Source: an uncultured Caldilineaceae bacterium | GTDB lineage: Bacteria; Chloroflexota; Anaerolineae; Caldilineales; Caldilineaceae | Assembly (NCBI GenBank): GCA_951812725.1 | Contig: OX638330.1 | Span: 1,054,001 to 1,118,000, forward strand | Direction of reading: 5' to 3' | DNA: 64,000 nucleotides | Shown: piece after piece, positions 3,787 through 55,031 of the stretch | How positions within the stretch are numbered: position 1 is the stretch's first letter | Layout of the letters: each line of letters begins with the position of its first letter | The notes under the pieces: generated by a model | Seen by the model: the letters and a program-made list of their open reading frames with translations, nothing else | Told to the model about the DNA's origin: nothing | The model's database searches: none | Translations under genes and position numbers: made by a program

Positions 3787-3806
3787 ACCATGTTGCCGTT
3801 CGCGCT

Positions 3807-18158: not shown

Positions 18159-18244
18159 TGGCGCTGCGTTCTCCAAGTCAGTCTGCTACGATCGAGAGTC
18201 GAAGATATCCCAAAGTGTGCCTTGCCGGGTTCCCCTATTGAATC

Positions 18245-18874: not shown

Positions 18875-18880
18875 TTGCAG

Positions 18881-19788: not shown

Positions 19789-19995
19789 GAAATATATAGT
19801 CCCTCCCGGTCTCCGGAAAGAGTGACAGCTACATGGAAATATGCGCAGAATTGTACCACAGAGACAATTGCGGGCCAGACCAGGCTTTGCCTCCCCAGTG
19901 TCCCCCGAACTTGCGTTTGTACGGGAATCCATTGTTTACTTGAACCTTGTAACAAGACAAAATCCAGGCAATGATCGCATATGAGGAGAACTCAA

Positions 19996-31301: not shown

Positions 31302-31395
31302 ACTGATCTGTTGAATGTCCCGACAAACGTTAAGACCGCCAATGCCGCACGGCCCAAACTACGCAGCCGCGGCCTGGACCATGTTAAAGTCACTG

Positions 31396-32362
31396 ATGCC
31401 GCGTACTCAGGTGGCTGCTGCGGTTGGAACGTCGGATGAGCCACCGTTCTTAGCCTTTTTGGAGCTACGCAGCCGCAACTGATTCGCAAACCTGAATGAG
31501 GCGAACAAAGGAGTTTGCTCTATCCGCACTCCCTGTTTATGGGCGGTCGGGCGCCAGCGCCCTCCCTTGTGCAGGGGCTGCGCCCCCGCAACGCCCCCCT
31601 CCAAAACCATCGCTTACCGACCGTGTGTGCTCATTCAAGCGGCACCGCTCCACCAACGTGGCTGCCCCAACCGAATACGCAATCAGATAGCCTGAATGGC
31701 GGCAGCGATAGACGGCTGGTCAAGCCAGGCACAGTATATGGCTCGGTAGCTACGCCTTTTCCACAAAATTCGGCCAGGGCATCGGTGCATAAGTCCTGGC
31801 ACTGGTAGCGGCTGCCGGTCTGGCCGCCAGCTTCCACACAATCATCTTCGCTTACGGCCGCAAAATATATTTTCTCTCTCGCTCCGGCTATCTTCCGCAA
31901 TTGCTCTCGCTGACTCTGCCAGATCGCAAGACACCTAGTGTGGCCCAGGATGGTGGCGCGGTGATTGGATACTGTGTTGCGCTGCTGACCTGGTTTGGCG
32001 AAGGGTGGCTCGGCAAAGAGGCGACGGTGGGAGCTGTACTGCTGAATATGGCGGCATTTGGCGCGGTCAATGAATACATCACGCTGATGACCGCGTTCGT
32101 CCGACTACGGCACTGCTTCCCGCCGACAAAGCGACCGTGCGTCAGCCCTCTGGGAAATGCCGGTGCAACTCCAGCAGCCGTGATCGCACTGATCACGCTT
32201 TTTGTTCCCCTTCTTAACCCCGACTACCGGCCGGGCGTCCATGGCTGCACAGTCTGGATTGCCGCAGGACTGCTATGCTTCTGTCTGAATGGGCGCAAGA
32301 AGTTGGTCCACTGGCCTGAAGAGGAATTTGCCGTGGAACATTCGACGCCCGCCAATGGCTGA
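31396..32362 (+). pseudogene. APC-superfamily (ethanolamine/amino-acid permease-like) pseudogene, split by an element
   Basis: Two parts of one permease read in the same frame either side of the element at 31461-31753. The left part ends VGTSDEPPFLAF (codons up to 31458); the right part resumes at 31754-31762 with AFSTKFGQGIGA, then an in-frame TAA at 31790-31792, then the family signature SFHTIIFAYGRK, GAVIGY, KRPCVSPLGNAG and NPDYRPGV to the stop at 32360. The 5' half of the gene (several membrane helices) is missing upstream of about 31396. The in-frame stop, the insertion and the lost N-terminus each make it non-functional. Confidence 0.8.
31461..31753. mobile_element. MITE copy 1 (293 bp) inside the permease pseudogene
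   Basis: Ends are GGAGCTAC and GTAGCTAC, related by inverted symmetry with inner AGCC matches. The flanks are GCCTTTTT (31453-31460) and GCCTTTTC (31754-31761), an 8-bp direct repeat with one mismatch, so it inserted by transposition and has aged. The core has CGGTCGG (31544-31550) pairing with CCGACCG (31617-31623), enclosing hairpins GGGCGC/GCGCCC and GGGGC-TGC-GCCCC. It carries no gene. About 290 bp is shared with the copies at 49806 and 53791. Confidence 0.88.
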
Positions 32363-32394
32363 TTCAAGGATTTTCGAACCCTTGCAAGCACCCG

Positions 32395-33579
32395 CTACTG
32401 ATATTTCTGCAGGATTCGCCGGGCGACGCTCATTTTGTGGACTTCGTCCGGGCCGTCGTAAATGCGGGAAGCTCTTTCGTGGCGGTACCAGAAAGCAACA
32501 GGTGTGTCGTCGCTCATTCCCAGACCGCCCAGAGCTTGTAGCGCGCGGTCCAGTACCCGCATCAGCACTCCCGCTACGTAAAACTTGATCAACGAAATCT
32601 CTTCTCGGGCCGCGTAAACCCCTTCCGTGTCGATCTTGTGGGCAGTGTCCAACACCATCAGCCGGGCTGCGTTAATCTCAGCACGGCTCTCGGCTACCCA
32701 TGCCTGTACCATCCCTTGCGAGCCCAACAGCCGCCCTGGGGCAACCTCTCGCTGCGCTGCACGGCTACACATGATATCGAAGGCGCGTTCGCAGATCCCG
32801 ATCCAGCGCATGCAATGGTGGATTCGGCCCGGTCCCAAGCGCAGCTGGGCCAGAGCAAAACCCTTGCCCTCTTCACCGATGAGGTTTTCCACCGGCACCC
32901 GCACGTCTTCGAACCAGATTTCCGAGTGGCTGTTCCAGCCGCCGTGGGCCTCTCCCATCACCGAGATATTTCGTTCAATATGAAAGCCTGCGGTATCCAG
33001 CGGCACTATTATCTGGCTGGCGCGCTGGTGGCGGCTGGTCGCATCCGGATTGGTCACAGCCATCAGAATCGCAAATGACGCCCCGTCTGCTGCGGTCGTG
33101 AACCACTTGTGTCCGTTGATGACGAACTCGTCGCCGTCGCGCACTGCGGTCGAACTCATCCATGTTGGATTGGACCCGGCATGCTCCGGTTCGGTCATGG
33201 CAAAGCAGGAACGGATTTCTCCGCGGGTGAGAGGTTGCAGGTATCGGTCTTTTTGCGCCGGGGTCCCGGCGTGAATGAGCAACTCCATATTGCCCATATC
33301 AGGTGCTTGGCAGCCAAAGACGTAGTGTCCGCCGGGTGTACGCCCCAAAACCTCGCTAACTCGTCCGAACTCGGCCAGCGTCAACCCCTGGCCGCCGTAC
33401 TCAACCGGCAGGGCTAGCCCCCACAGCCCGGCCTCTTTAGCGACCTCCCTTTTCTGGTCAAGCAAAGGCTCAACCTCGGCCCAAGGACGGCTGATCAGCA
33501 GCTTCTCCAGCGGTACAACCTCTTCGTCAATGAAACGGCGGACCCGAAGAAGAATATTGGGAAGTATATCGGTCGTCAT
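32395..33579 (-). CDS. Acyl-CoA dehydrogenase, ACAD10/11-like
   Basis: A 394-residue flavoenzyme of normal length with the family blocks CFAMTEPEHAGSN and FVINGHKWFTT in the FAD-binding half and QALGGLGMSDD in the C-terminal helical domain. The catalytic-base position reads DGPDEVHK, the ACAD10/11-type variant, rather than the usual EGT. It would oxidise an acyl-CoA; the chain length is unknown. Followed on the same strand by an SDR gene; together they may degrade a fatty or hydroxy acid. Confidence 0.88.
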   Translation of the reverse strand: MTTDILPNILLRVRRFIDEEVVPLEKLLISRPWAEVEPLLDQKREVAKEAGLWGLALPVEYGGQGLTLAEFGRVSEVLGRTPGGHYVFGCQAPDMGNMELLIHAGTPAQKDRYLQPLTRGEIRSCFAMTEPEHAGSNPTWMSSTAVRDGDEFVINGHKWFTTAADGASFAILMAVTNPDATSRHQRASQIIVPLDTAGFHIERNISVMGEAHGGWNSHSEIWFEDVRVPVENLIGEEGKGFALAQLRLGPGRIHHCMRWIGICERAFDIMCSRAAQREVAPGRLLGSQGMVQAWVAESRAEINAARLMVLDTAHKIDTEGVYAAREEISLIKFYVAGVLMRVLDRALQALGGLGMSDDTPVAFWYRHERASRIYDGPDEVHKMSVARRILQKYQ

Positions 33580-33661
33580 GATTCAACCTTATTCACGGTC
33601 AGAAACTGGCGCGTCTGAGGGTCCCGGCCTTGGAAAGAGGCTGCACAATAGGTCACGTCCT

Positions 33662-34450
33662 TCATTCACCCAAACCAGCATCTATCCACTGGCCGCCGTC
33701 TACCAGAAAAGTGGCTCCGGTCGTAAAACTGCTGGCTTCCGACGCCAGGTAGAGGGCAATTCCGGTCAATTCGCTGGTTTCGGCAATCCTCTTCTGCGGT
33801 ATAGCCTTTAGCACGGTCTTTTTAAGTTCGGGGTTGTCCCAGATCGCGCGACTGAAGTCCGTCCTGACGAAGCCTGGCGCGATCGCGTTGACCTGGATGC
33901 CTTCGTCGGCCAGCTCCGCGGCCAAAACCTCTGTGAGCATCAGGACGCCGGCCTTGCTGACGCAGTACACGCCCATTCCCGGCTGCGGACGCCTGCCGGC
34001 AATTGAAGCAAGATTGATAATCCTGCCGCCGCTTCGTTTCATCATCTCAGCACTGCATGCCTTGGCCATACGAAAGTAGCCGATCACGTTCACATCGAGG
34101 ATCTTGTGCCAGTGGCTCTCCTCCGCCGAAAGGATCGGCCCAAAATGGGGATTGGTGGCCGCGTTGTTAACCAATATGTCGACGCCACCAAAGGCGCGCA
34201 CCGCCTCTCGCACCAGCGAATCAACTGCCTGCACGTCGCCCGTATGCGCTGCAACTGCCAGGGCGCGACCGCCTTCAGCCCGAATCGAGTCGGCCACTTC
34301 GTCCAGCGCCGCCTGCTTGCGGCTGCTCAGCACGACCGCGGCCCCCATCGCCGCATAGCAGCGGCCAATCGCCGCGCCAATGCCCCTGGAGGCGCCGGTA
34401 ATCACCGCGACCTTGCCCTCAAGATCGAAATTTGGGAGATGCGCCAACAA
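33662..34450 (-). CDS. SDR family oxidoreductase (classical, beta-ketoacyl-ACP-reductase-like)
   Basis: A 262-residue classical [15 protein letters not shown] is the cofactor-binding motif, NNAATN the structural NNAG-type motif, and YCVSKAG supplies the catalytic Tyr and Lys. The start is TTG (34450 or 34447) just after AGGAGAG. It lies 80 bp upstream of the acyl-CoA dehydrogenase gene on the same strand. Confidence 0.88.
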
Positions 34451-34741
34451 CTCTCTCCTGACGTGAACAGCCGCACAGAATCTTGCTTCTGAATATGGGG
34501 AATGGCATTTTCAGTATAGCACCGGGGTGGGTCGTGGACAATCCACTTGGGCTATGGGGGGTCTGACCTGGACTTGTAAGTAGTTGAAGAATGGCCTTGG
34601 TTTGCAGGGTAGGTGGATCCACAGGAGGTCGAGGAAAAGGACTGCCCAGTGTGCAGAGACGCACCTGAAACGAATGCAACTGAGGTGGCTACTTGGCCGA
34701 AGTGAAGTGCGTGACTATCTATAGCTAATAGCACACTGACG

Positions 34742-35593
34742 TTACGGGCTTCGATAAACGTGCGCCGGGTCCAACACTGACTTCTCGTTATCCAGTTCTT
34801 CGGTCAAAACGCCATCCTGCAGCGGTGTGCACTTTGAGTCAGTCAAAACGAAGAGCAGAGGATCAACCCTGTACTGTGCCAGGCCAACTTCGAGCGCATC
34901 CCGGGCGCGGAAGAGTCGGACAACGGCATTCCCCAAACTCCCCACCCGGACCAGTCCTCGTTCCTCCAGCAACGCCCCAAGCTTGTTGAGGTCATTGCCC
35001 CCAAAACCAGGCTTCGGACCATATACAAATGTGGGAAGCGGACGCCGTGAGCCGTCCCGGTCCTGCACCCTTGCCTCTACTTCGCGCCAGCGTCGATAAG
35101 GGACCTGGACCAACTGTTCCACCAAGTGAAAGAAGGTACAGCGCAGGTAGGGCACGCCCACAAGAAGAATGTGGGCATCCAACTCATAGAGCTTCCAGAA
35201 CGGACCGTCTGCCGCCCATGCCGATGGCCCGTGACAGGCGGTAAACTCCTCTGCCTGCGCTCCCAGGGCAGCGACGGAATGGAGCAAGTGGCAACTTCGA
35301 CGCGCACCCGGCCTTCTCCGGGTTACCTCGGTAAGGCGGCCCATCTCCGAGGGGTCATGGGCTGGGTCGAAAACGGGATTGGCGTTCCTTCCATGAGTAA
35401 ATGTGAAGGTTGGCACAATGAGAGTTCCTGCTGGACCGAGCACGTCCAAAGCGGCATCAACGAGGGAATCGGCCCCGCCTTCTACAAATCCTATGCTGCT
35501 CATCGAACTGTGCACCATGACGTTCGCGCCGGCCGGCAGACCCAGCGCTCGCAATGCCGCAGCTATCTCTTCCCGCGTCTGAACCTTCCGCAT
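34742..35593 (-). CDS. Aminoglycoside N(3)-acetyltransferase-like protein (AAC(3) family)
   Basis: A 283-residue acetyl-CoA-dependent N-acetyltransferase of the AAC(3) family. ATG at 35593 has AGGAG eight bases upstream; the nearby GTG at 35602 is too close to it. MVHSSMSSIG is the first acyl-CoA-pocket block, and RRSCHLLHSVAALG holds the His typical of the active-site region. Many environmental members acetylate other amines, so antibiotic resistance cannot be inferred. It is transcribed away from the gat operon. Confidence 0.82.
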   Translation of the reverse strand: MRKVQTREEIAAALRALGLPAGANVMVHSSMSSIGFVEGGADSLVDAALDVLGPAGTLIVPTFTFTHGRNANPVFDPAHDPSEMGRLTEVTRRRPGARRSCHLLHSVAALGAQAEEFTACHGPSAWAADGPFWKLYELDAHILLVGVPYLRCTFFHLVEQLVQVPYRRWREVEARVQDRDGSRRPLPTFVYGPKPGFGGNDLNKLGALLEERGLVRVGSLGNAVVRLFRARDALEVGLAQYRVDPLLFVLTDSKCTPLQDGVLTEELDNEKSVLDPAHVYRSP

Positions 35594-35695
35594 CAGGGGC
35601 ACTCCTTCCAGCCATTCTGGTTATCGGCTTCCCGTATGTTGTATCCCACCGATTCGCTTCTGTCAATGGCATTCTGTTGTCATGTATACTGGTAT

Positions 35696-35724
35696 TTGAC
35701 ACCAACAACGACTCCAACTATACT
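35696..35724 (+). promoter_or_regulatory. Near-consensus sigma-70 promoter upstream of gatC
   Basis: Perfect TTGACA (35696-35701), exactly 17 bp, then TATACT (35719-35724). This is the strongest promoter match seen in the window. Transcription would begin near 35731 and cross a structured leader before gatC. Confidence 0.8.
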
Positions 35725-35730
35725 CTTGCC

Positions 35731-35918
35731 ATGCATATTGATACGCCCAGCCAGGTGAAGCAATCTCAAATTGTAGCGAACGATGCAGCAGGCGCAGCAC
35801 CGCGCGTGCTGCGGTAGCAAGTAACGCTGGTTACACTGCGCCGTAGGCACCGACAAAAAGTCACGGCGCTGGGGGGAACGCTCGGATGCGTCGTGGACTT
35901 TTCCCACGGCGTTTTTTT
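35731..35918 (+). ncRNA. Structured gatC leader or small RNA ending in an intrinsic terminator
   Basis: About 188 nt between the promoter and a terminator. Hairpins: CGCAGCAC/GTGCTGCG (35793-35813), GTAAC/GTTAC (35821-35834), GCGCCGT...ACGGCGC enclosing GAC/GTC (35838-35869) and the terminator stem. The word CACGGCG occurs in both the third hairpin (35862-35868) and the terminator (35905-35911), so the two stems can swap partners. This is what an attenuator would need. No T-box motif or other known riboswitch core was seen; an independent small RNA is the alternative. Confidence 0.5.
35889..35918 (+). terminator. Intrinsic terminator 40 bp before gatC
   Basis: CGTCGTGG (35889-35896), loop ACTTTTC, CCACGGCG (35904-35911) with one G-U pair, then seven U (35912-35918). 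A complete rho-independent terminator lying after the gat promoter and before its start. Confidence 0.8.
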
Positions 35919-35958
35919 GTGGACTGTCCCAACTTCTTTTCCACGCCGCGAGATAATT

Positions 35959-36258
35959 GTGAAATTGACGAGAGATGAGGTTCGGCACGTTGCTGAACTG
36001 GCAAAACTGCAACTTAGCGACGCCGAACTTGACGAATATGCCGGTCAACTCGGGCAGATTCTGACATATGCTCAACAGGTCCAGTCTGTGGATACCAGCG
36101 CCGTTCCTCCAACGCCACACATTCTTCCACTCAGCAATGTGCTGGCGGATGACATGTCGCAGACTTGCCTTTCGGCCGCACAGGCTGTCGACAACGCCCC
36201 CGATGCTGATGAAGGCTATTTTCGGGTAATCGCCGTGTTTGACGACAACGGAGCCTAA
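35959..36258 (+). CDS. gatC: Asp-tRNA(Asn)/Glu-tRNA(Gln) amidotransferase subunit C
   Basis: A 99-residue protein from GTG at 35959, the normal size of GatC. Starts upstream would lie inside the terminator hairpin. The family pattern is clear: VRHVAELAKLQLSDAE at the N-terminus, LGQILTYAQQVQSVDT, then VLADDMSQT near the C-terminus. GatC stabilises the GatA-GatB complex that amidates mischarged Glu-tRNA or Asp-tRNA. gatA follows 61 bp later; gatB is absent from the window. Confidence 0.9.
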   Translation: MKLTRDEVRHVAELAKLQLSDAELDEYAGQLGQILTYAQQVQSVDTSAVPPTPHILPLSNVLADDMSQTCLSAAQAVDNAPDADEGYFRVIAVFDDNGA

Positions 36259-36319
36259 AGGGTAACAGGATGATGGCTGACCAGGCGCTTTACTACCTCG
36301 GGCGAGGAGGCCCAAAAGC

Positions 36320-37798
36320 GTGATAGGCTGCCGCGATGCGACGAAACAGTTGACTTCGATGGGAGTGGCCGACGCGCGCGCAGGTTTGGTGGCAGGTCAA
36401 TTTACCTCCGTCGACCTGACGCAGGCATTTCTGCAACGGATCGAGCGCGTGGATGGTTCGCTTCATGCCTTTCTGCGAACAACCCCTACCACTGCGCTGG
36501 CCGCGGCCGCGGAGGCCGATCGCGCACGTGCTGACGGGGACAGTCGACCCTTGTTGGGCGTTCCGCTTGCAATAAAAGACGTGCTGATGACCAAGGGTGT
36601 CGAGACGACCGCCGGCAGCCGCATTCTGGAGGGCTTTGTCCCGCCCTATTCCGCGACCGCTGTAGAAAAACTGGAAGCGGCCGGCGCGATTCTACTGGGC
36701 AAGACCAACACCGATGAGTTTGCAATGGGGTCCAGCACTGAGAACAGCGGCTATGGCCCGACCCGGAATCCCTGGGACCTCGAGCGTGTGCCGGGCGGCA
36801 GCAGTGGCGGCTCCGCGGCGGCAGTGGCCGCAGATGAAGCGCCGGCTGCTCTGGGAACCGATACCGGCGGCAGTGTACGACAGCCCGCTGCGTTGTGCGG
36901 CGTAGTCGGTTTGAAGCCCTCCTACGGCCGCGTTAGCCGCTATGGCCTAATCGCCTACGGCAGCAGCCTGGACCAGATCGGGCCAATTACCAAGACGGTT
37001 GCAGATGCCGCGCTGCTGCTGGAAGTGATGGCCGGCGCCGACCACCGCGACAGCACAACCATGCCTGTAGACGTGCCAAATTTCTCTGCAGCGCTAAACC
37101 GCGACATCGCAGGGCTGCGTGTAGGAATCCCTCACGAATATTTCGTCGAAGGAATCCAGGCGGAGGTCGAGGAATCGGTACGTTCGGCCATCGAGCAGCT
37201 GGCTGACCTGGGGGCGGAAATCGTCCCAATCCACCTGCCCAACACGGAGTTGGCCCTACCTGTCTATTATCTGGTCGTCACGGCAGAGGCCAGCGCCAAC
37301 CTCGCCCGCTTCGATGGCATTCGCTTCGGCCTAAGCGTCGATGGCGAAACGATATTTGACCACTTCCGTCAAACACGCGGCGCCGGTTTTGGCCCGGAGG
37401 TAAAACGGCGCATCATGCTGGGAACCTATGCGTTGAGCACCGGTTACTACGACGCCTACTATCTGAAAGCGCAACAAGTGCGTACTCTGATCAAGCAGGA
37501 CTTCGACAGTGCATTTGCCGAGGTTGATGTAATTGTCTCGCCCACGTCGCCGACCACTGCCTTCCGGATCGGCGAAAAAGTTGACGATCCTCTGGCGATG
37601 ATTCTGACCGACATTTTCACAACCAGCGCCAATCTGGCCGGTCTCTGCGGGATCAGTATCCCTTGCGGCTTCGATGCCGGCGGACTTCCCATTGGTCTGC
37701 AACTGCTAGGCCCTTCCTTGGGCGAAGAGAAAATATTGCAGGCTGCCTACGCCTACGAACAGAGCACGGAATGGCGTCTGCGGAGGCCGGAACTGTGA
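36320..37798 (+). CDS. gatA: Asp-tRNA(Asn)/Glu-tRNA(Gln) amidotransferase subunit A
   Basis: A 492-residue amidase-signature protein of normal GatA length, GTG start with AGGAGG at 36305-36310. The Ser-cisSer-Lys triad is present: Lys86 (LAIKDV), Ser161 (GGSSGGS) and Ser185 (DTGGSVRQP), with the family spacing. It releases ammonia from glutamine for transfer to the mischarged tRNA. gatC is directly upstream in one operon. Confidence 0.93.
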   Translation: MIGCRDATKQLTSMGVADARAGLVAGQFTSVDLTQAFLQRIERVDGSLHAFLRTTPTTALAAAAEADRARADGDSRPLLGVPLAIKDVLMTKGVETTAGSRILEGFVPPYSATAVEKLEAAGAILLGKTNTDEFAMGSSTENSGYGPTRNPWDLERVPGGSSGGSAAAVAADEAPAALGTDTGGSVRQPAALCGVVGLKPSYGRVSRYGLIAYGSSLDQIGPITKTVADAALLLEVMAGADHRDSTTMPVDVPNFSAALNRDIAGLRVGIPHEYFVEGIQAEVEESVRSAIEQLADLGAEIVPIHLPNTELALPVYYLVVTAEASANLARFDGIRFGLSVDGETIFDHFRQTRGAGFGPEVKRRIMLGTYALSTGYYDAYYLKAQQVRTLIKQDFDSAFAEVDVIVSPTSPTTAFRIGEKVDDPLAMILTDIFTTSANLAGLCGISIPCGFDAGGLPIGLQLLGPSLGEEKILQAAYAYEQSTEWRLRRPEL

Positions 37799-38048
37799 CG
37801 GACATCTGCGAACTGAGCAGGGAAAATCCGACTTCCGTGACGGCTGGCGAGAACCACACGCGGCCAACGGACTTCGATGCAGGTCGCGGCGCAGCCTATG
37901 CATCCTGCCGGCAACGGTTCAGTTAAGTCGCTGACCGTTGTGGAATCGGCAGCAAAGACTTCTTCCCTCTTACAGGAAGTTTGAATACTCCCCGGACCTT
38001 TTCCATTAATTGCATACACCGGTGCCAGCCGGAAACGACACTTTAGAA

Positions 38049-39323: not shown

Positions 39324-39402
39324 CAATGACGGAAGAATGATGTCAGCTCAGCGAGCACGGACCACAATGCACTCCGTGCCGTCGGGGAAGAGGTCAGACA
39401 TG

Positions 39403-40860: not shown

Positions 40861-41329
40861 GGAATCGCCGAATTGACGCGCCAATACAATGACAATCAGA
40901 CTGTTAAACGATGCGAGCGCTAAGCTCTTGCCTCGGACAAGCTCTGAACGCTCCAGCGATGTTCCACAGGCCAGACCGATTATATCATAGGATGAAAATG
41001 ATTCTCCAACACACCTGAGCAGGGGCACTCTCCCTGCCCGACCCCTGCCTATTACCCAGGCTTCAAATTAGCCTTAGGACAGCGTCAATCTAGCCGTGCA
41101 GACCACTTTCGCATGCGCTGGGTCTCTTTCTTGGAAATGCAACTGCAATCCGGAGGCGACGCTTGAACGGCTATCGCTCAAGTCGGAAACGGACATCTCC
41201 GAATGAAAGCAAGCCGCGCCACATTGACGTGTTCATAAGAGTCGAGTACTATTTTCATGGGTTCTCCACATCTTTCTCGGTGCACCAGGAAGATCGACCA
41301 TTCCACTTTCAGCATCTACTACTACTACT
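40861..41329. other. Divergent intergenic region, no gene seen
   Basis: No convincing coding sequence in 469 bp between the subtilase and amidohydrolase genes. It includes a promoter candidate for the right-hand gene (41224-41252) and an ACT-trinucleotide run ending at the amidohydrolase start. Confidence 0.5.
41224..41252 (+). promoter_or_regulatory. Probable sigma-70 promoter for the D-aminoacylase-like gene
   Basis: TTGACG (41224-41229), 17-bp spacer, TACTAT (41247-41252); five and four of six consensus bases. It would give a leader of about 70 nt. Confidence 0.5.
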
Positions 41330-42967: not shown

Positions 42968-43030
42968 CTTCGTTTAGCGACGCCCTTGTCAACAGGGATC
43001 AGTTGTCGTTGGATTTTGAGCTACTGCCTA

Positions 43031-44020: not shown

Positions 44021-44057
44021 GCATTGAAGCGCGGCTCGCGGCAAACGCCCAATGGCT

Positions 44058-44828: not shown

Positions 44829-44900
44829 TGCAGCAATCACCGTTGACGAATGGCAAGAACAACTGAATGTGCGCTCGATTTGCATCCGAGCCAACTTCCG

Positions 44901-45905: not shown

Positions 45906-45961
45906 TAGTTCAAGAAATGAGTGAACGGCAATGAATGAACGGTAATAGGACGCAACTGCTA

Positions 45962-47281: not shown

Positions 47282-47314
47282 AGCAACAAAAGAAAGGGTG
47301 CCAAAAAAGCCGGG

Positions 47315-48592
47315 TTATGCAAGTGCTTCCAGCACTTTGGTCACGCCGTCAATAGTCTCCTCCACATCGGCATTGCGCATGGCCGGGCTGACATGTATCG
47401 TAACCGCCCGGCCCAGCAGATCGAGTGAACGCGGGCACATATCCGGAGAATAGGCCAGTTCCCTCTTGGCCCAGCGCCAAGGACCGCCGCCGTCCGTCCA
47501 GGCGCGCCGCGACAGCACCGGAAACCAGTGAGCATACACGTGGAAATCGCGCTGCTCTGGCCGGTAAAGGACTCCGGCGGAAATGTTCTCCGCGTTCAGA
47601 CCGTGCGCGACCGCCTGGGCCCTCGCGGGTGTCTCAAGGAACATGGCGAGGGAGATGGCGCTATCGCCTTCCGGGTCCGGAATCTCTCGAAAGGTTACAC
47701 CTTTGCCTGCCGCGGTCGGTTCGATGCCGGCCATAAGCATCTCTTTCCTGGCCCGCGCGGCGGCTACGATGCCCTGCAACCTTCCCAACTGCACCAGTCC
47801 GATGGCCGCAGGAATCTCCGCCATCCTGAAGTTCGCTCCCCACAGCACCTCTTCTTCGGGCAGATCCAACCGATTCGAAGCGGCCACGTCGTGAAACATG
47901 AACGCTCGTTGCCAAACCTGACGGTCGCTCGTCGTGACCATGCCGCCTTCGCCGGTCGTAATTATCTTGCTGAACTGCAAGCTGAAGCAGCCGACGTCGC
48001 CAATAGAGCCGAGCCTGCGTCCCTGGAAGCTGGCCCCATTGCCCTGGGCGCAGTCTTCGATTATGCGCAACCCGTGACGGCCGGCAATGTCCTGAATGGC
48101 ATCCATCCGTGCCGGCGCGCCTCGCATGTGGACCGGCATGATCGCCTTAGTGTGCGGGCTGATCTTGCGCTCAACATCGTCCGGATCCAGTGTCAGCGAC
48201 TCGTCTATCTCGGCAATAATGGGTATGCCGCCGACCGCCATTACTGAAGTGGCCGATGCCATCCACGTGAAGGCAGGCACGATTACCTCATCGCCAGGGC
48301 CGATGCCGATGCCCTGCAGACCGCATATCAGTGCCGCCGTGCCCGACGTGACCGCCAAGGCATGGGCCGAACCGACCGACTGTGCAAACTCCTCCTCCAA
48401 CTTATCTGCACGCGATTCGCCTTCCTCACTGCTGAAAAAGCGGAAAAGCTGTTTGGCGCGCAGCACGTCGAGTACGGCCTGCTCCTCAGCGTCGTCGAGG
48501 GCTTGTCCGCCCGCTGCCATGTACGGCTCCATCCGCTCGCGAGCGGGTGTTCCTCCGTCTATGGCCAGTAATGGAGCAGCAGATGTTGACAT
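47315..48592 (-). CDS. DegT/DnrJ/EryC1/StrS family aminotransferase
   Basis: A 425-residue PLP-dependent aminotransferase of the nucleotide-sugar type. The fold-type I blocks VTSGTAALIC, FTWMASA, IEDCAQGNGA and Schiff-base Lys209 (FSLQFSKII) are present. These enzymes aminate keto-sugars of antibiotics and surface glycans, which fits the glycosyltransferases nearby, although AHBA- or glutamine:scyllo-inosamine-type members exist. The sugar is not known. Confidence 0.9.
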   Translation of the reverse strand: MSTSAAPLLAIDGGTPARERMEPYMAAGGQALDDAEEQAVLDVLRAKQLFRFFSSEEGESRADKLEEEFAQSVGSAHALAVTSGTAALICGLQGIGIGPGDEVIVPAFTWMASATSVMAVGGIPIIAEIDESLTLDPDDVERKISPHTKAIMPVHMRGAPARMDAIQDIAGRHGLRIIEDCAQGNGASFQGRRLGSIGDVGCFSLQFSKIITTGEGGMVTTSDRQVWQRAFMFHDVAASNRLDLPEEEVLWGANFRMAEIPAAIGLVQLGRLQGIVAAARARKEMLMAGIEPTAAGKGVTFREIPDPEGDSAISLAMFLETPARAQAVAHGLNAENISAGVLYRPEQRDFHVYAHWFPVLSRRAWTDGGGPWRWAKRELAYSPDMCPRSLDLLGRAVTIHVSPAMRNADVEETIDGVTKVLEALA

Positions 48593-48720
48593 GGATAGTC
48601 CTCCAATTGGGGACAGAAAGCGCGGTGAAATAGTCTTTGGAAGTCAAGAAGTCGATCCCCTGTTACACTTTCGCCCTTGGCCTCCAGCAACCGCGATCAG
48701 TATAACATAGCGCCAAACTG

Positions 48721-48749
48721 TTGACAGTCTGCAGGAGTCGTGTTTTACT
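48721..48749 (+). promoter_or_regulatory. Probable sigma-70 promoter for the Gfo/Idh gene at 48796
   Basis: Perfect TTGACA (48721-48726), 17-bp spacer, TTTACT (48744-48749; four of six consensus bases). The leader would be about 40 nt. Confidence 0.5.
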
Positions 48750-48795
48750 TCCCCAACTGTATCGACAGTATACGCAAAATATGGGAGCTGAAAAT

Positions 48796-49776
48796 ATGGA
48801 CAAGACTCGCTGGGGTATTCTGGGAACGGGGCGCATCGCCGGTGACTTTGCCACCGGTCTGGCCGCAGAGGAAGACGCAGAAGTCGTCGCCGTCGGCTCC
48901 CGCTCTCAGGAAACTGCCGACAGGTTCGCCGATCGCTTCGGCATTCCAAACCGGCATCCCACCTACGACGCGCTTGCGGCCGACCCCATGGTGGATATCA
49001 TCTACATCGCCACCCCTCACCCACTGCACAAAGAGAATACGATCAGTTGCCTGCGCGCCGGCAAGGCCGTGCTATGTGAGAAACCGTTCGCGATCAATAG
49101 CGCCGAGGCCCAGGAGATGATCGACTGCGCACGCGCCAAAGGCGTTTACCTGATGGAGGCGATGTGGACGCGTTTTCTGCCTCATATTCGTGAAATGGTC
49201 CGTCGCATCGAAGAAGGACAAATAGGCGACATCCGTCTGTTTCAGGCAGATTTCTGCTATCGCGCACCGCTGAATCCAGAACGTCGCACATTTAACCCGG
49301 CCCTTGGCGGCGGCGCGTTGCTGGATGTGGGCGTATACCCGATTTCGCTGGCCCATCATTTGCTGGGTGAACCTGCCCACGTCGCGTCGCTGGCGCATCT
49401 GGGTGTGACCGGCGTGGACGAGATTGCGGGCATGCTCTTCAAGTACCAGAGCGGCGCTTTGGCTGTAATGTCCACTGCTGTCCGAGCCAACTCGCCCGAT
49501 TCGCTACTCATTAGTGGGACTGAGGGAGAGATACGCGCACACGACCGCTGGTGGAAGCCATCCGGTTTCACGATAACCCGTGACGGCCGCGAACCGGAGA
49601 CAGTGCGCCCTGACATCATCGGCAATGGCTGGAACTACCAGGCCGTAGAATGCGGCCGCTGCCTCAGGGAAGGACTGACTGAACACGACCTGATGCCCCT
49701 TGACGAGTCACTGGCGATCATGCGCCTGATGGATGGCTTGCGGCAGGAGTGGGGTCTACGTTATCCAATGGAGTAA
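48796..49776 (+). CDS. Gfo/Idh/MocA family oxidoreductase
   Basis: A 326-residue protein from ATG at 48796, with GGGAG about eight bases upstream. GILGTGRIAGDFA is the Rossmann motif, the EKP motif is canonical (LCEKPFAINS), and a trans-dihydrodiol-dehydrogenase-like GGGALLDVGVYP block follows. Likely an NADP-dependent sugar or dihydrodiol-type dehydrogenase; the substrate is not known. Between the DegT aminotransferase and the MITE copy 2. Confidence 0.87.
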   Translation: MDKTRWGILGTGRIAGDFATGLAAEEDAEVVAVGSRSQETADRFADRFGIPNRHPTYDALAADPMVDIIYIATPHPLHKENTISCLRAGKAVLCEKPFAINSAEAQEMIDCARAKGVYLMEAMWTRFLPHIREMVRRIEEGQIGDIRLFQADFCYRAPLNPERRTFNPALGGGALLDVGVYPISLAHHLLGEPAHVASLAHLGVTGVDEIAGMLFKYQSGALAVMSTAVRANSPDSLLISGTEGEIRAHDRWWKPSGFTITRDGREPETVRPDIIGNGWNYQAVECGRCLREGLTEHDLMPLDESLAIMRLMDGLRQEWGLRYPME

Positions 49777-49805
49777 GTGCGAAGCCGGATCAGGAATACC
49801 CTTCA

Positions 49806-50091
49806 GTAACTACGCAGCCGCAACTGATTCGCAACCCTGAACGAGGCGAGTGAAGGTACTTACTCTCTCCTCATTCTCTGTTTTTTGGGCGGTCGGGCCT
49901 TCGGCCCTCCCTTGTGCAGGGGCTGCGCCCCCGCAACGCCCCCCTACAAAACCATGCCTCACCGACCGTGTGCCTTCATCGCAACGTGTCGGCTGGCGAG
50001 CATGACGGCGGCTGTACACCGGTTGTGTCACCAAGCCACTGAAGGGTTCCAGGGAAGACTGGCTGGTCAAGTACTGTGGCTTAGTAGTTAC
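49806..50091. mobile_element. MITE copy 2 (286 bp), intact ends
   Basis: The ends GTAACTAC and GTAGTTAC are exact reverse complements; the terminal 17 bases match at 14 positions. The flanks are ACCCTTCA on both sides (49798-49805 and 50092-50099), a perfect 8-bp direct repeat. The core is the same branched fold with variable hairpin GGGCC-TTC-GGCCC. It sits between two convergent genes and disrupts none. GTAA ends with an 8-bp target duplication are the published pattern of the IS66 family; no transposase is in the window. Confidence 0.9.
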
Positions 50092-50112
50092 ACCCTTCAA
50101 GAGAAGATTACA

Positions 50113-50976
50113 CTAGGCACTACTTTCTTCTTGCCTAACCGCCTGCAGACAATAATGCAGGCTACCCCGCAATAATTCGACAACCCTGCTGTCCGGAGCA
50201 CCTGCCTCCAGTGCATCCGGTTGCAGTTCTAACGAAATGGAGTGACCGTAACCGTCCGCGGCCATCCTGGCCAGCAACGCGTCCAGTCTCAAATTGCCGT
50301 CCTCGGGCCGTCGGTGTTCGCTACCGTCGAAGTTGCTAAGGTGGACATGCTTTACCCGCTGCCCCCAGAAGTTGTAGGCCTCGACAGGGTCCAGCCCCCA
50401 TGTGCCCAGGTGTGTTGTATCCAAAGTGATGTGCGGAAATCGGGTAATATCGCCGAGCGTCGCCTGGCTGTGCGGGTTCCAGCGCGCGGGGTTGACGCGC
50501 ACGCCCATAAACCGCTGGGCCGGCAAGTTTTCAATGCACAAGAGGACATCGGTTCTGGCCTGGAGCTCAGCATAGCTCTCGGTGAGCCAATCTGCGTACT
50601 GGCGGTTTAAGGTATCAAATGGGTTGGGCAGCAACAGGCTGCGACTAGCAGTCTGCAGAAAGGCAGCTCCGTAACGTGTGGGTAGGTGGTGAACGACTAC
50701 CTGCGCGTCCAGTTCAACTGCCAGTTCGGCGGTGCGGGCGATGGCGCCGACCTCGGTCTCGCCCCAGCCTTGGCAGTTGCGGCTGAACGGACTATGGAGA
50801 GCCGGGATCGTGAGCGCGTGGCTGTCCATCAGGTAGCGCAAATAGTCGAGCTGGCGCGTGTCCCAGCGGTGATCTACCATCATTTCGATACCTTCAAAGC
50901 CGGCTTCGGCCGCCAGCGCAAAGACGCGGTCGATACTGTAGTTGTAAAGTGAACCAGTGGAAAAGATGAAACGCAT
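50113..50976 (-). CDS. Sugar phosphate isomerase/epimerase (AP-endonuclease-2 family)
   Basis: A 287-residue TIM-barrel protein from ATG at 50976 (an upstream TTG at 50994 is possible). Metal-binding pattern: EIMM-like EGIEMMVDH, VVHHLP, CIENLP, LDTTHLG and HLSNFDG. Related to the isomerase at 19996 but only distantly. It may act on a sugar produced by the neighbouring Gfo/Idh dehydrogenase; substrate unknown. Confidence 0.85.
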   Translation of the reverse strand: MRFIFSTGSLYNYSIDRVFALAAEAGFEGIEMMVDHRWDTRQLDYLRYLMDSHALTIPALHSPFSRNCQGWGETEVGAIARTAELAVELDAQVVVHHLPTRYGAAFLQTASRSLLLPNPFDTLNRQYADWLTESYAELQARTDVLLCIENLPAQRFMGVRVNPARWNPHSQATLGDITRFPHITLDTTHLGTWGLDPVEAYNFWGQRVKHVHLSNFDGSEHRRPEDGNLRLDALLARMAADGYGHSISLELQPDALEAGAPDSRVVELLRGSLHYCLQAVRQEESSA

Positions 50977-51050
50977 GGCAAATTCTCTGGACAAACGTAG
51001 CCTGCGGCTGCGCCATCGAAGAAGGCAATTGAACAGGTGCCGCTCCAGCG

Positions 51051-51896
51051 TCAGCCTGGAAACGCGCGCGCCGCGAACTGTGAAAGTGATGTCGGACGGC
51101 GGCCCAGCAACCAGCCCAGGACGTTGCCGTTTCCGACCAGGCCGTGGCGGTCATAGTAGCGAAACATCGCAGCTAGTGCCTCTATTGTTTCACCGGGCAT
51201 CCCGCTGGCACTTGCAGACTTCTCCCAACTCTCGAGAGGCACTTGAACGGCATTAACAGGTCGCCGCAATTGGTTCGCTAGGGCATGTGCTATCTCCTCC
51301 GAAGACAAATTCTCCGGTCCAGCCAACTCGTAGATCGCCCCGGCATGGCATGATTCTGTGAGAACCTTTGCTGCGGTCCAGGCAACATCAGCCAGATCGA
51401 CCAATGCAAAGCGAGCCTGGATATTGTAAGGTACAGTATACTGGCCGGTTGTGGCTATCTGTTCCCGGTAGGCAAGCACGTTTTGCATGTACGCGCATGG
51501 CTGCAGAACAGTGAAAGGCAGGCCGCTGCGGAAGATCTCCTCTTCGACACGCAGCTTTTGCCAGTGGTGGGGCATCTCTTCCGTCTGCGGGTGGAGAACC
51601 GAGTGGTAGACGAAGCGTCCTATACCGGCCCGCTCCGCGGCCTGCAAGGCCAACCTTCCGACTTCGATTTCGCGTGTATACATGTTGGGGCAGATGAGAT
51701 AAATTGCATCGACTCCAACGCACGCTTCCCGCCACAGGCCGGCATCCTCCAGATCACCGACAACGGTATCGGTAACTTTGAGATTCTGGGCCTGTTCATG
51801 GCGTCGTAACCAAGCGCGCACCGGCCGGCCGGTCTGGGCCAGCGCATCAGTGACCGCATGGCCGGTCTTGCCTGCGGCCCCGGTAACCAGAATCAT
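51051..51896 (-). CDS. NmrA/SDRa5-type NAD(P)-binding protein
   Basis: A 281-residue atypical SDR. TGAAGKTGHAV is the cofactor loop, and VLQPCAYMQN is a typical NmrA/QOR-like block; the catalytic Tyr-x-x-x-Lys is not evident, as in NmrA relatives. ATG at 51896 overlaps the Uma2 stop by four bases (ATGA), so the two proteins are made together. Confidence 0.82.
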   Translation of the reverse strand: MILVTGAAGKTGHAVTDALAQTGRPVRAWLRRHEQAQNLKVTDTVVGDLEDAGLWREACVGVDAIYLICPNMYTREIEVGRLALQAAERAGIGRFVYHSVLHPQTEEMPHHWQKLRVEEEIFRSGLPFTVLQPCAYMQNVLAYREQIATTGQYTVPYNIQARFALVDLADVAWTAAKVLTESCHAGAIYELAGPENLSSEEIAHALANQLRRPVNAVQVPLESWEKSASASGMPGETIEALAAMFRYYDRHGLVGNGNVLGWLLGRRPTSLSQFAARAFPG

Positions 51897-52480
51897 GCGG
51901 AAAAAATCTCATTCACGAGGACAGCAAAGCCCGCCAACACTTCTGATCTTGCAATTTCATCTTCGCCGAAGCTTCCAAGCAAACGGTAGGATCCATCTCG
52001 CAGAACATGAATCTCAGCCGTCCGCTCCCGGGGATCGATAATCCAGTACTCGGGCACGCCCGCCTCTGCGTAAATCTCGTACTTCAGTCTGACGTCATGG
52101 GACGGATTGGATGGCGACAACACTTCCATCACCAAGTCAGGCGCGCCCTGGATGTTTAGTTCGCCAACGACGGGGAGACTCTCTCGACGGATTACCACAA
52201 TGTCAGGCTGGACGGGATCTCCCAATTTATCGGGGAGAATTACATCAATGGGAGCGGCGAAGGCTGTGCCCAGTTTCGACTCTTGGAGATATCCTTCCAG
52301 AAAAAACGCAAGGCGGGTGATAACTCGCTGGTGCAAGGGTCGCGGCGCCGCTGACTTATAGAGTTCTCCCCGAATTACTTCGTAGCGCTTGCCATCTTCT
52401 GGGAGAAGGGCATAGTCGTCATACGTCCACTCCCCCTGCGCCGGAAGCTGCTCAGTCTGCGAGGCATATGTGGCTGTCAT
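51893..52480 (-). CDS. Uma2 (DUF820) family putative nuclease
   Basis: A 195-residue PD-(D/E)XK-type protein from ATG at 52480 with AGGAG close upstream. Conserved pattern: YEVIRGELY, VQPDIVVI (Asp), APDLVMEVLSPS (Glu) and KYEIYAEAGVPEYWIID. DUF820 genes are abundant in cyanobacteria and Chloroflexota; the substrate is unknown. Confidence 0.88.
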   Translation of the reverse strand: MTATYASQTEQLPAQGEWTYDDYALLPEDGKRYEVIRGELYKSAAPRPLHQRVITRLAFFLEGYLQESKLGTAFAAPIDVILPDKLGDPVQPDIVVIRRESLPVVGELNIQGAPDLVMEVLSPSNPSHDVRLKYEIYAEAGVPEYWIIDPRERTAEIHVLRDGSYRLLGSFGEDEIARSEVLAGFAVLVNEIFSA

Positions 52481-52537
52481 TGACTCCTGAACTCGGCGCA
52501 CTATGCCCCTCCTTTTCCAAACCCGTGGGCGCACATT

Positions 52538-52572
52538 CAGTGGCTGGTAACCTTACCGATTACCAGCCACTG
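52538..52572 (-). terminator. Perfect 13-bp hairpin downstream of the NMT1-type binding protein gene
   Basis: CAGTGGCTGGTAA (52538-52550) and TTACCAGCCACTG (52560-52572) are exact reverse complements with a nine-base loop. On the minus strand it follows the binding-protein stop at 52604. There is no U-run; a strong stem can stop polymerase or protect the 3' end. Confidence 0.6.
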
Positions 52573-52603
52573 CTGACTCGTCGCAATCTGGCGATACGAT
52601 TGT

Positions 52604-53746
52604 CTATTCGCCTCCCTCAACCAGTTCTACTTCAATGGGTGTGTAGCTATCTCCCATCGTGTCGCCATCCAACAGTCCGAGAGCCGCCTCCGCCAAGTCT
52701 GAGCGGAAGGCACCGTCACTGGGCGCCTCAGCTATTACGCCGCCGTCTACGGAAACCTGCACGGTCTGATCCCAAAGAGTCTGGTCCATCACGCCGATTC
52801 CTGCCGGGGAAGGCCAGATCAGCTTATTGATCTCATTCAACTGCCAGCTCATATGGCTTAGGCCAAGTGTGGGACCGTTGTCGAGAACGACCTGGACGCA
52901 AGCGTCAAAGCTGTCGCGGCAGAACTGCCAGCCCTTGAAGCTAGCTGCCAGGAAGCGCACTGCGATGTCCTCATTGCCCTCCTCCGCCAACCAGGATTCC
53001 CGCGCGAAAACATGATCCTGTAGCATGGCCGTGCCCACGTCGTTGAAGTCGATGACCACAAGGTCAGACGGCTGATAAAGTTCGCCGGTCTCGGAGTTGA
53101 CCGCCTCCAGAACCTGGGCGTACTCGTTGTAGATCATCGCCTGCGCGGCGTCGAGTTCCCGGTTGAGCAGGGCCAGCATATCGAAACTCTGCTGAATGAC
53201 AGTGACATCGTCAGGGTTGTTCGGGTCAATGCCCTCAGCACGCATGGCTACGAACAGCTCATGCTCATTGCCGAAACCCCAGGTTCCGACTTTCTTGCCC
53301 GCCATGTCGGCAATGGTTGCAACCGGCGCGTCGGCCCAGGAGACCTCCAACGTTCCGCTGCGCTGGAATACCTGCGCAATATTGACCAGGTCGGCGCCTT
53401 CCGCACGCGAGGCCAACACTTTGGGTACCCAAGCCAGGCCGAACTCGGCTTGGCCGGAGGCGACCACCTGCTGCGGCACAATGTCGACCGCGCCTTCAAG
53501 GATGGTCACATCCAAGCACTGCTCTTCGTAAAAGCCTTGATCAACGGCGGCAAAGTAGCCTGCAAACTGGGACTGGGTCACCCACTGGAGCTGCAAACTG
53601 ACCGGAGTGAGTTCGGCGCATCCGTCTTCAGCCATGGCCTCGTCACCGCCGGAGTCCATCGCCGGAGCTGCCGGAGCGACGCATGCCCCCAGCATCAGGA
53701 TGAGCAGCGTGAAACCCGTCAGCAACCGTGCATTTCGATTTCTCAT
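52604..53746 (-). CDS. NMT1/SsuA-like ABC substrate-binding lipoprotein
   Basis: A 380-residue exported binding protein with AGGAGG upstream of the ATG. The signal peptide ends at lipobox Cys22 (LMLGAC). The NMT1/THI5 pattern is clear: VSLQLQWVTQSQFAGYF, then DQGFYEEQCLDVTI and DLVVIDFNDVG. These proteins bind pyrimidine (thiamine-precursor), sulfonate or hydantoin-type ligands. With the permeases and ATPase at 54087-58839 and the enzymes at 58836-61193 it likely imports a pyrimidine-like compound. MITE copy 3 separates it from the permease gene. Confidence 0.9.
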   Translation of the reverse strand: MRNRNARLLTGFTLLILMLGACVAPAAPAMDSGGDEAMAEDGCAELTPVSLQLQWVTQSQFAGYFAAVDQGFYEEQCLDVTILEGAVDIVPQQVVASGQAEFGLAWVPKVLASRAEGADLVNIAQVFQRSGTLEVSWADAPVATIADMAGKKVGTWGFGNEHELFVAMRAEGIDPNNPDDVTVIQQSFDMLALLNRELDAAQAMIYNEYAQVLEAVNSETGELYQPSDLVVIDFNDVGTAMLQDHVFARESWLAEEGNEDIAVRFLAASFKGWQFCRDSFDACVQVVLDNGPTLGLSHMSWQLNEINKLIWPSPAGIGVMDQTLWDQTVQVSVDGGVIAEAPSDGAFRSDLAEAALGLLDGDTMGDSYTPIEVELVEGGE

Positions 53747-53790
53747 GAGATCCTCCTGAGGAACTGTGATTGAAAAAAGAGTCGTAAAAT

Positions 53791-54079
53791 GGTTCTACTC
53801 AGCCGCAACTGCTTCGCAAACCTGAATGAGTGAGCAAAGATGTTCTTTCCCCCCGCATTGTATTATGGGCGGTCGGCCGCAAGCGGCCTCCCTTGTGCAG
53901 GGGCTGCGCCCCCGCAACGCCCCCCTCCAAAACCATCGCTCACCGACCGTGTGTGCTCATTCCAGCAATGCCGCTCCTCCAACCTGGCTGCCGCCAACTG
54001 AATACGAATCAGATAGCCTGAATGGCGGCAAGGATAAAGGGCTGGTCAGGACAGGCACTGTAAATGGCTTAGTAGCTAC
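53791..54079. mobile_element. MITE copy 3 (289 bp) inside the ABC transporter operon
   Basis: Ends GGTTCTAC and GTAGCTAC. The flanks are CGTAAAAT at 53783-53790 and at 54080-54087, a perfect 8-bp direct repeat whose right copy touches the permease stop codon (54087-54089 on the minus strand). The variable hairpin reads GGCCGC-AA-GCGGCC. No gene is broken, but the element separates the permease and binding-protein genes of one minus-strand operon. Confidence 0.9.
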
Positions 54080-54086
54080 CGTAAAA

Positions 54087-55031
54087 TTACGCCCGAAAAG
54101 TCTGATGCCACGGTAAAGCCAACCGTTCTGCCAACAAAATAACCAGATAGATGGCGATGCCAAGTAAACATGCTACGAGTATCGCGGCCCATGCCGTCGC
54201 AAATCGGAATAACGCCGCCTCTTGGGTGATGAAAACTCCCAAAGCAATGCGTGGACCGCCGAAGTATTCGCCCACAATCGCTCCGATCATCGCCAGCGCT
54301 CCCGCCACTTTCAGGCCGCTGAACAGTGATGGAAGTGCGTTGGGAATCCGCAGTTTCATCAGAATTTCGGAATCGCTGGCCGCATACGAGTGCATCAGTT
54401 CCAACGAACGGTTGTCGACCGAAGTCAGCCCGCGCACTGTATTGATCATGATCGGAAAGAAGATCATTATCGTTACAATCGCCATTTTGGAAAATGGGTT
54501 GTCGATGCCGAACCAGTTGTTCATGATCGGCGCAAACGCGATGATCGGCATAGAGTTGGCGGCGATGGCAAAGGGCAGCAAAGCCTCACGCGATGCGGTC
54601 CAGCGTGTTGTAGCAAGCGCTACCGCGATGCCTGCCACTGTTCCCATCGCCATCCCTCCCAGCGCTTCTTTCAACGTGAACCAACTTGCCGCCAGGATTG
54701 GCATGAGGTTGCTGCCCCGCACTATGAAGACGTTGCGGCTGCCGAGGGGGAAATTCAGCCATCGTGCTGCCTCCAGGACCGCCTGCCGTTCAGGCGTCAG
54801 TCCACCAGGCAGGACAACAAGAAACCGGTTATCCAGAGAGGCTTCCTCTTCTGCATCGCCTGAGGTCGCGGACCCGACGACGACAACCTGAGCAAGATTT
54901 CCAACTATGGCCGTTGGCTTTGGCAAAAGAAACTGCTGGATGTTGAAGGCTGTCACCAGCCCTTCCCACAGGATGACAAGCGCAACCAGAATGAGAATCG
55001 GCGCCCAGATGCGTTGCCTGCGCTCGCTCAT
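54087..55031 (-). CDS. ABC permease, SsuC/TauC-type, with a large extracytoplasmic insert
   Basis: A 314-residue permease. The first membrane segment (PILILVALVILWEGL) and the family NxQxFLLPKP block are followed by about 75 hydrophilic residues (roughly 50-125) before the second membrane segment, longer than in SsuC/TauC (about 250-260 in total). The EAA-type loop (SLELMHSYAASDSEILMKLRIP) and remaining segments are normal. It overlaps the ATPase gene by four bases (ATGA at 55028-55031). Confidence 0.88.
   Translation of the reverse strand: MSERRQRIWAPILILVALVILWEGLVTAFNIQQFLLPKPTAIVGNLAQVVVVGSATSGDAEEEASLDNRFLVVLPGGLTPERQAVLEAARWLNFPLGSRNVFIVRGSNLMPILAASWFTLKEALGGMAMGTVAGIAVALATTRWTASREALLPFAIAANSMPIIAFAPIMNNWFGIDNPFSKMAIVTIMIFFPIMINTVRGLTSVDNRSLELMHSYAASDSEILMKLRIPNALPSLFSGLKVAGALAMIGAIVGEYFGGPRIALGVFITQEAALFRFATAWAAILVACLLGIAIYLVILLAERLALPWHQTFRA

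What the first reader, a model, noticed from the sequence alone, without database searches (positions are those of the whole stretch)
31453..54087. Three-copy family of ~290-bp miniature elements with terminal inverted repeats and 8-bp target duplications
Copies at 31461-31753, 49806-50091 and 53791-54079 align along their length. Copy 2 has exact 8-bp inverted ends (GTAACTAC/GTAGTTAC) and each copy is flanked by an 8-bp direct repeat: GCCTTTTT/GCCTTTTC, ACCCTTCA twice, CGTAAAAT twice. This shows the exact element boundaries. GTAA-type ends with an 8-bp duplication are known for the IS66 family, so a MITE mobilised by an IS66-type transposase is inferred. None of the copies encodes a protein.
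Basis: partly seen in the sequence, partly recalled or inferred. Interest (0 to 1): 0.8.

Follow-up and report, generated by a model that had tools for sequence, protein, structure and literature searches.

The report
Replication-oriented cloverleaf core inside IS66 miniatures
Three short non-coding elements in this window, with the ends and flanking repeats of mobile DNA, carry a 38-base core that occurs 432 times in the genome of a likely Caldilineaceae bacterium; most sampled copies face one way relative to the chromosome's strand asymmetry and stay intact while their surroundings decay, so the core, predicted to fold like a cloverleaf, likely acts as a direction signal during DNA replication or segregation.

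Summary
All three copies have GTAA-type or related ends and 8-bp target duplications (two exact, one 7 of 8). The IS66 inference holds: the genome has six identical 1,569-bp single-gene IS66 elements whose ends equal the right end of copy 2 over 14 bases, and one class of MITE right arm carries an inverted 54-nt relic of the transposase gene's 3' end. The family is far larger than three: a 38-base core (up to 3 mismatches) occurs 432 times in the 5.95-Mb genome. The core is the surprise. About 56 bases long, it is predicted to fold as a three-way junction whose two hairpins co-vary between copies and species. It is almost invariant (0.24% mismatches in 43 copies) although their target duplications (7.3%) and, in 76 copies, the arms (9.7%) have decayed. 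It follows GC skew: 111 of 121 sampled copies at home, 97 of 100 listed copies in a second complete chromosome, independent of gene direction at home. Draft relatives vary (29 of 40; 8 of 14; 6 of 6). I read it as an IS66-spread, replication-polar DNA signal kept by selection. Its reader and the origin's place are unknown; another polar repeat keeps insertion or purging biases open.

The parts
31453..31460 (.). left target duplication of copy 1 (GCCTTTTT)
   Evidence: 7 of 8 match with 31754-31761
31461..31753 (+). MITE copy 1, 154-class right arm
31541..31597 (+). conserved core of copy 1 (predicted three-way junction)
31754..31761 (.). right target duplication of copy 1 (GCCTTTTC)
49798..49805 (.). 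left target duplication of copy 2 (ACCCTTCA)
49806..50091 (+). MITE copy 2, 146-class right arm; right end identical over 14 bases to the IS66 end
49887..49942 (+). conserved core of copy 2
50092..50099 (.). right target duplication of copy 2 (ACCCTTCA)
53783..53790 (.). left target duplication of copy 3 (CGTAAAAT)
53791..54079 (+). MITE copy 3, 154-class right arm
53867..53923 (+). conserved core of copy 3
54080..54087 (.). right target duplication of copy 3 (CGTAAAAT)

Best explanation
This is a high-copy family of IS66-type miniature elements, with ends that match the genome's own IS66 insertion sequence, whose shared core of about 56 bases stays nearly unchanged while its surroundings decay and mostly faces one way relative to strand skew, so that it likely works as a directional DNA signal during chromosome replication or segregation. 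Shown: ends, target duplications, the matching IS66, copy number, core invariance against decayed arms and target duplications, co-variation of its two hairpins, and orientation that follows GC skew but not gene direction at home. Inferred: an IS66 transposase moved the elements in trans; GC skew marks the replication strand; the core is read as a folded single strand or by a directional DNA machine; selection keeps intact, correctly facing copies. Unknown: the reader of the signal and which skew switch is the origin.
For: IS66; target duplications. Core copies: 432, control 0. Polarity at home: 111 of 121 cores in 81 stretches agree with local GC skew (one stretch, L178, reads all N). Second complete chromosome (G061): 164 places counted, 100 listed; 53 of 56 forward places lie in one arc and 44 of 44 reverse in the other, and the 3 exceptions sit where skew is locally negative; 13 of 13 cores in 20 fetched stretches agree with their stretch's skew. 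Not gene-driven at home: 459 ORFs in core direction against 478 opposite. Constraint: in 43 sampled copies, target duplications differ at 25 of 344 sites but cores at 4 of 1,634; nearest-neighbour arms differ at 1,679 of 17,370 sites, their cores at 11 of 2,888 (76 copies); 30 sampled cores without recognisable ends have 12 mismatches in 1,140 sites and 29 of 30 agree with skew. Of 50 end pairs with at least 6 of 8 matching flanking bases, 50 hold a core. Structure: the same three-way fold is predicted for three variants as DNA; the two hairpins pair in 97.2% of 246 cells with 17 cells changed on both sides, each more than in any of 500 shuffles.
Against: Bias is weaker in two draft relatives: 29 of 40 in G010, 8 of 14 in G013. 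One complete genome of the genus (G004) shows neither core nor this transposase, so the genus does not need it. A second C-rich repeat is also polar (16 of 17 scoreable stretches). In G061 long ORFs lean the core's way (62 against 42 of at least 300 aa; 82 against 74 of at least 150 aa). Folding z-scores of home variants are modest (-0.9 and -0.5 as DNA), and two of five co-variation measures do not beat the shuffles (reached by 75 and 218 of 500). The six IS66 copies are too few (2 one way, 4 the other) to show that insertion itself is unbiased. No reader protein is known.
Confidence: 0.5

Rival explanations
1. The polarity arises at insertion: the transposition complex picks the target at the fork or on lagging-strand DNA in a fixed orientation, and the core is conserved because it is needed for transposition or is homogenised by gene conversion.
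For: 50 of 50 end pairs with at least 6 of 8 matching flanking bases carry a core; core variants differ between species; another repeat is polar too.
Against: Among 76 copies compared, no arm pair is closer than 3.4%, so these copies do not look recent, yet their cores are intact, also where ends are no longer recognisable. Conversion would have to stop sharply at the core edge while leaving three P2 hairpin types side by side. Draft relatives hold misfacing copies.
Confidence: 0.25
2. Passive purging: a GC-rich hairpin element facing the wrong way stalls forks or is unstable, so only one orientation survives; the core has no function.
For: Sampled copies with both ends agree with skew in 51 of 58 cases, copies that lost one or both ends in 60 of 63, a trend in the expected direction that I did not test for significance.
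Against: It does not explain why the core sequence, linkers included, stays almost invariant after insertion.
Confidence: 0.15
3. The core is a structured RNA (small RNA, attenuator or terminator) and its orientation merely follows genes.
For: Stable RNA fold and co-variation; a lean of long ORFs in the core's direction in G061 (62 against 42).
Against: No co-orientation with genes at home (459 against 478 ORFs; neighbour contexts mixed); no Rfam match at the copies.
Confidence: 0.07

Closest known systems
IS66-family MITEs (non-autonomous derivatives of IS66 insertion sequences)
   Same: GTAA-type ends, 8-bp target duplications, no coding capacity, matching autonomous IS66 in the same genome, relic of the transposase gene in one arm class.
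   Different: Hundreds of core copies, an invariant structured core unrelated to the IS in each of 50 end pairs tested, multi-core arrays, and orientation tied to strand skew.
KOPS and other architecture-imparting sequences (AIMS)
   Same: Strand-polar, many copies, found on both arms. Definition seen in the abstract and passages of PMC5993296.
   Different: AIMS are 8-bp motifs whose number and bias rise towards the terminus; here about 56 bases, structured, carried by mobile elements; a gradient could not be judged from the capped listing.
Bordetella repetitive element BRE (PMC3110155, passages seen)
   Same: GC-rich intergenic repeat of about 90 bp, tandem copies at some loci, features of mobile elements.
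   Different: Its authors report that it is not co-oriented with the replication fork; 44 full-length copies in Bordetella; no IS66 ends mentioned in the passages seen.
BrickBuilt, a minisatellite-bearing MITE of Porphyromonas gingivalis (PMC4596501, abstract seen)
   Same: MITE with internal tandem repeats.
   Different: 19 copies; 23-nt tandem unit; no replication polarity mentioned in the abstract.
REP/RAYT systems (recalled)
   Same: Hairpin repeats in hundreds of copies.
   Different: No Y1 transposase (PF01797) found in this genome; the elements have inverted-repeat ends and target duplications.

Membership tests
IS66-derived MITE | Terminal inverted repeats matching an IS66 element | tested here: met
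   First 14 bases of the resident IS66 end identical to the right end of copy 2 and to both right-arm consensus ends; left consensus 13 of 14
IS66-derived MITE | 8-bp target duplication | tested here: met
   34 of 81 exact, 20 of 81 with one mismatch, 27 of 81 with two or more
IS66-derived MITE | No transposase gene in the element, autonomous partner in the genome | tested here: met
   No ORF of 100 aa or more in the three copies; six IS66 copies
IS66-derived MITE | Internal sequence derived from the parent IS | tested here: inconclusive
   One arm class carries an inverted 54-nt relic; the left-arm consensus matches the IS only at its end; the three cores have no match to the IS better than E 0.38
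IS66-derived MITE | Mobilised in trans by the IS66 transposase | not testable with these tools
   Needs a transposition assay
AIMS/KOPS | Strand-biased distribution | tested here: met
   111 of 121 at home; 97 of 100 listed in G061; weaker in G010 (29 of 40) and G013 (8 of 14); 6 of 6 in G014
AIMS/KOPS | 8-bp motif | tested here: not met
   Conserved over 38 bases at 97-100%; core octamers are not the most polar octamers elsewhere in the genome
AIMS/KOPS | Abundance and bias rise towards the terminus | tested here: inconclusive
   100 listed G061 copies by distance from the 0.08-Mb switch: 14, 26, 16, 14, 16, 14; the listing is capped (100 of 164, one-mismatch places stop at 5.01 Mb), so the first bin is an undercount, and the terminus is not placed
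REP/RAYT | Y1 (RAYT) transposase in the genome | tested here: not met
   PF01797: no match in the own genome
Known structured RNA family | Match to an Rfam model | tested here: not met
   Window scan up to E 5: 5 weak matches below their gathering scores, none at the copies

The most novel reading that the evidence does not exclude
A mobile, self-spreading chromosome signal: an IS66-type miniature element has seeded hundreds of copies of a folded, three-way-junction DNA motif that gives the chromosome arms their polarity and is kept by selection at each site, with co-varying versions in different species of the genus.
Probability: 0.35. Interest if true: 0.9.

Novelty: new variant of a known kind. 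Interest (0 to 1): 0.75.

Why it matters
How chromosome-wide polar signals arise and spread is open, because known ones (KOPS, AIMS) are 8-bp motifs too short to trace. Here the candidate signal is long, structured and datable copy by copy through its target duplications, with a known type of vehicle and with a natural absence (G004). That makes selection against wrongly facing copies directly testable, and it offers a possible case of transposons supplying chromosome architecture.

Tried and rejected
REP/RAYT mobilisation: rejected, no Y1 transposase match. Rfam RNA: none at the copies. Gene-driven orientation: rejected at home, with a lean of long ORFs in G061 noted. Plasmid or phage relatives: no match in the plasmid or phage records; no exact pattern match in viral contigs. 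Core octamers as the genome's most polar octamers (KOPS-like): not so; the polar octamer CCTCCGTG comes mostly from one region (23 of the first 30 contexts printed lie in positions 1-20,000). An outer stem (CGGTCGG/CCGACCG) that I first suspected is not well kept (84% of cells, no double changes); the inner stem GGGCG/CGCCC is predicted instead. Core from the IS: no match better than E 0.38. Origin placement: dnaA and parS-like sites lie nearer the positive-to-negative skew switch, whereas rpoB direction in G061 and the usual skew convention favour the other; rRNA genes are mixed; no cluster of three DnaA boxes in 500 bases in the stretches held; left open. Core-less MITEs as a control: none among 50 end pairs. 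Literature: the titles listed (lists capped at 10-12 where more papers matched) show no paper on this family.

Full report
WHERE IT IS. The window is positions 1,054,001-1,118,000 of a single-contig 5.95-Mb genome. Of 40 loci that encode relatives of its IS66 transposase, the 10 at 72-91% identity (best segment; two of them partial) all lie in Caldilineaceae MAGs of the Chloroflexota, and the other 30 are at 61% or less.

THE OBSERVATION. The three elements, their ends and their 8-bp flanking repeats are as described, except that copy 2 shares only the first ~165 bp and the right tip well with the others. The family is large: 432 cores with up to 3 mismatches, 0 for the reversed pattern.

THE IS66 LINK. 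PF03050 finds six matches in the genome. They are identical 1,569-bp elements with 15-bp perfect terminal inverted repeats GTAACTACTAAGCCT and 8-bp duplications, 5 of 6 exact and 1 of 6 with 7/8. The 496-aa protein has DDE_Tnp_IS66, zf-IS66 and DUF6444 domains and passes NCBI's IS66 model. The MITE right-end consensus is identical to this end over 14 bases, the left end at 13 of 14, and the 154-class right arm carries an inverted 54-nt relic of the transposase gene's 3' end. The core has no match to the IS (best E 0.38). Among 153 copies with enough flank (156 gathered, of which 121 from unbiased stretches and 35 only from loci, the latter listed for perfect cores), 81 have both ends; 54 of these have 7 or 8 matching flanking bases, 27 fewer. 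In the genus, 15 of 17 genomes have a match to the transposase, many only fragments; G004 and G009 have none.

THE CORE. At fixed offset, without gaps, conservation is 97-100% over 38 bases, 53-97% over the next 26, and 34-91% beyond or more than 20 bases upstream (154 copies); gaps make the outer figures somewhat too low. Allowing 8 substitutions in 81 stretches (one all N), 121 cores were found: 110 perfect, 6 with one, 4 with two and 1 with six mismatches. That this is not survivorship by the search is supported: all 50 end pairs with at least 6 of 8 matching flanking bases contain a core. Target duplications serve as a clock: 25 of 344 sites differ in 43 copies, against 4 of 1,634 core sites. 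Because two flanks diverge independently, neutral decay would predict about half the flank figure, some 59 core changes. One caution: one of the six identical, hence recent, IS66 copies already has a 7/8 duplication, so part of the 7.3% may be there from the start. A second measure agrees: nearest-neighbour arms differ by 9.7% and in no case by less than 3.4%, cores by 0.38% (76 copies; this set includes copies listed for perfect cores). Sampled cores with no recognisable ends are still nearly intact (12 of 1,140 sites, 30 copies).

FOLD. The minimum-energy DNA fold of three variants is the same three-way junction: GGGCG/CGCCC closing two hairpins; the RNA fold is the same for two and slightly different for the third. 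Against shuffles the home variants are unremarkable (z -0.9 and -0.5 as DNA; -1.2 and -0.9 as RNA), a relative's variant is strong (-3.55 as DNA), and the complementary strand of the home core folds better (-1.76 as DNA, -3.09 as RNA). Across 21 sequences from the genus (20 distinct) the two hairpins pair in 97.2% of 246 cells with 17 cells changed on both sides; these two measures and the covariation score exceed all 500 shuffles, while the number of pairs with double changes (3) and of further pair types (9) are reached by 75 and 218 of 500. Within 44 sequences chosen for diversity there are again 17 such cells, with two measures reached by 169 of 500 shuffles. The closing stem was not tested for co-variation. 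Single-sided changes favour neither strand clearly, so whether DNA or RNA folds, and which strand, is open.

POLARITY. At home, core direction agrees with local GC skew (flanks without the element) in 111 of 121 cases; where skew exceeds 0.04 in size, in 95 of 100. In OY282376.1 (G061; its positions coincide with those of genus member G012), 164 cores were counted and 100 listed: all but 3 fit two arcs that meet near 0.08 and 2.73 Mb, where skew changes sign; the 3 exceptions lie where skew is locally negative. In draft relatives: G010 29 of 40, G013 8 of 14 and G014 6 of 6. Tandem cores are not independent, so I give no p-values. Gene direction does not explain it at home (459 against 478 ORFs; 100 of 121 cores lie outside ORFs of 150 aa or more); in G061 ORFs lean slightly the core's way (82 against 74; 62 against 42 for long ones). 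The skew-to-replication step is inference. The direction relative to the fork is unresolved: dnaA and parS-like sites lie nearer the positive-to-negative switch, while rpoB in G061 and convention favour the other; rRNA genes are mixed.

DISTRIBUTION. With up to 3 mismatches: 11 of 61 genomes, all 11 among the 17 of the genus. With a covariance model: 16 of 396 class genomes, 14 of them in the genus; the other two are weak (E about 2e-4 and 4e-4) and the lines printed for them show at most a similar hairpin. G004, complete, has none in either search. Combining both calls, 16 of 17 genus genomes carry it, some weakly (for example G007 with 4 matches).

READING. The vehicle is an ordinary IS66 MITE. 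What is not ordinary is that its cargo outlasts the vehicle, keeps its sequence and mostly keeps one facing. Selection for a polar signal explains all three together; insertion bias plus gene conversion, or passive purging, explain less. The weaker bias in G010 and G013, the second polar repeat and the absence in G004 keep my confidence at one half. The six IS66 copies are identical and so recent, while the MITEs look old: the IS66 in the genome today may be a relative of the one that spread them.

PRINT. The titles listed by searches for Caldilineaceae with MITE, IS66 MITEs, and strand-biased MITEs or repeats (lists capped) show no paper on this. PMC10969869 (a MITE review, term search of the main text) has no occurrence of IS66, replication or orientation. 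PMC3189936 (passages) lists two IS66 entries, both degenerate. AIMS are defined in PMC5993296 (abstract and passages). PMC3110155 (passages) reports a repeat not co-oriented with the fork.

Noticed in passing
G000 stretches L075, L093, L114, L194 and others (window genome 1-20,000; 5.40 Mb; 5.85 Mb; 5.93 Mb): A second C-rich repeat (around TCCGTGGACAAAA) occurs in 18 of the stretches, in arrays at some; its direction agrees with GC skew in 16 of 17 scoreable stretches.
   Followed up: partly
G000 213,391-214,274 and other loci: Arrays of up to five cores between one pair of IS66-type ends (1,131 bp), units about 208-215 bp, spacers with TGACCAC minisatellites; also half cores in spacers.
   Followed up: partly
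window 31357-31370: A 14-base exact match to the MITE left end of copy 2 lies about 90 bp before copy 1 (E 0.22, may be chance).
   Followed up: no
G000 0.5-2.0 Mb: GC skew and core direction flip together several times, as if this part had been rearranged by inversions.
   Followed up: no
G000 4.85 Mb and G061 5.20 Mb: In G000 dnaA lies beside a recA-like reading frame, not in a typical origin cluster, and the origin could not be placed.
   Followed up: partly
G004 (complete relative): The one genus genome in which no core was found also has no match to this IS66 transposase.
   Followed up: partly
G000 six IS66 copies (1.18, 3.12, 3.41, 3.88, 4.02, 4.55 Mb): They are identical and so recent, whereas among 76 MITE copies compared none is closer than 3.4% to another in the arms.
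   Followed up: partly
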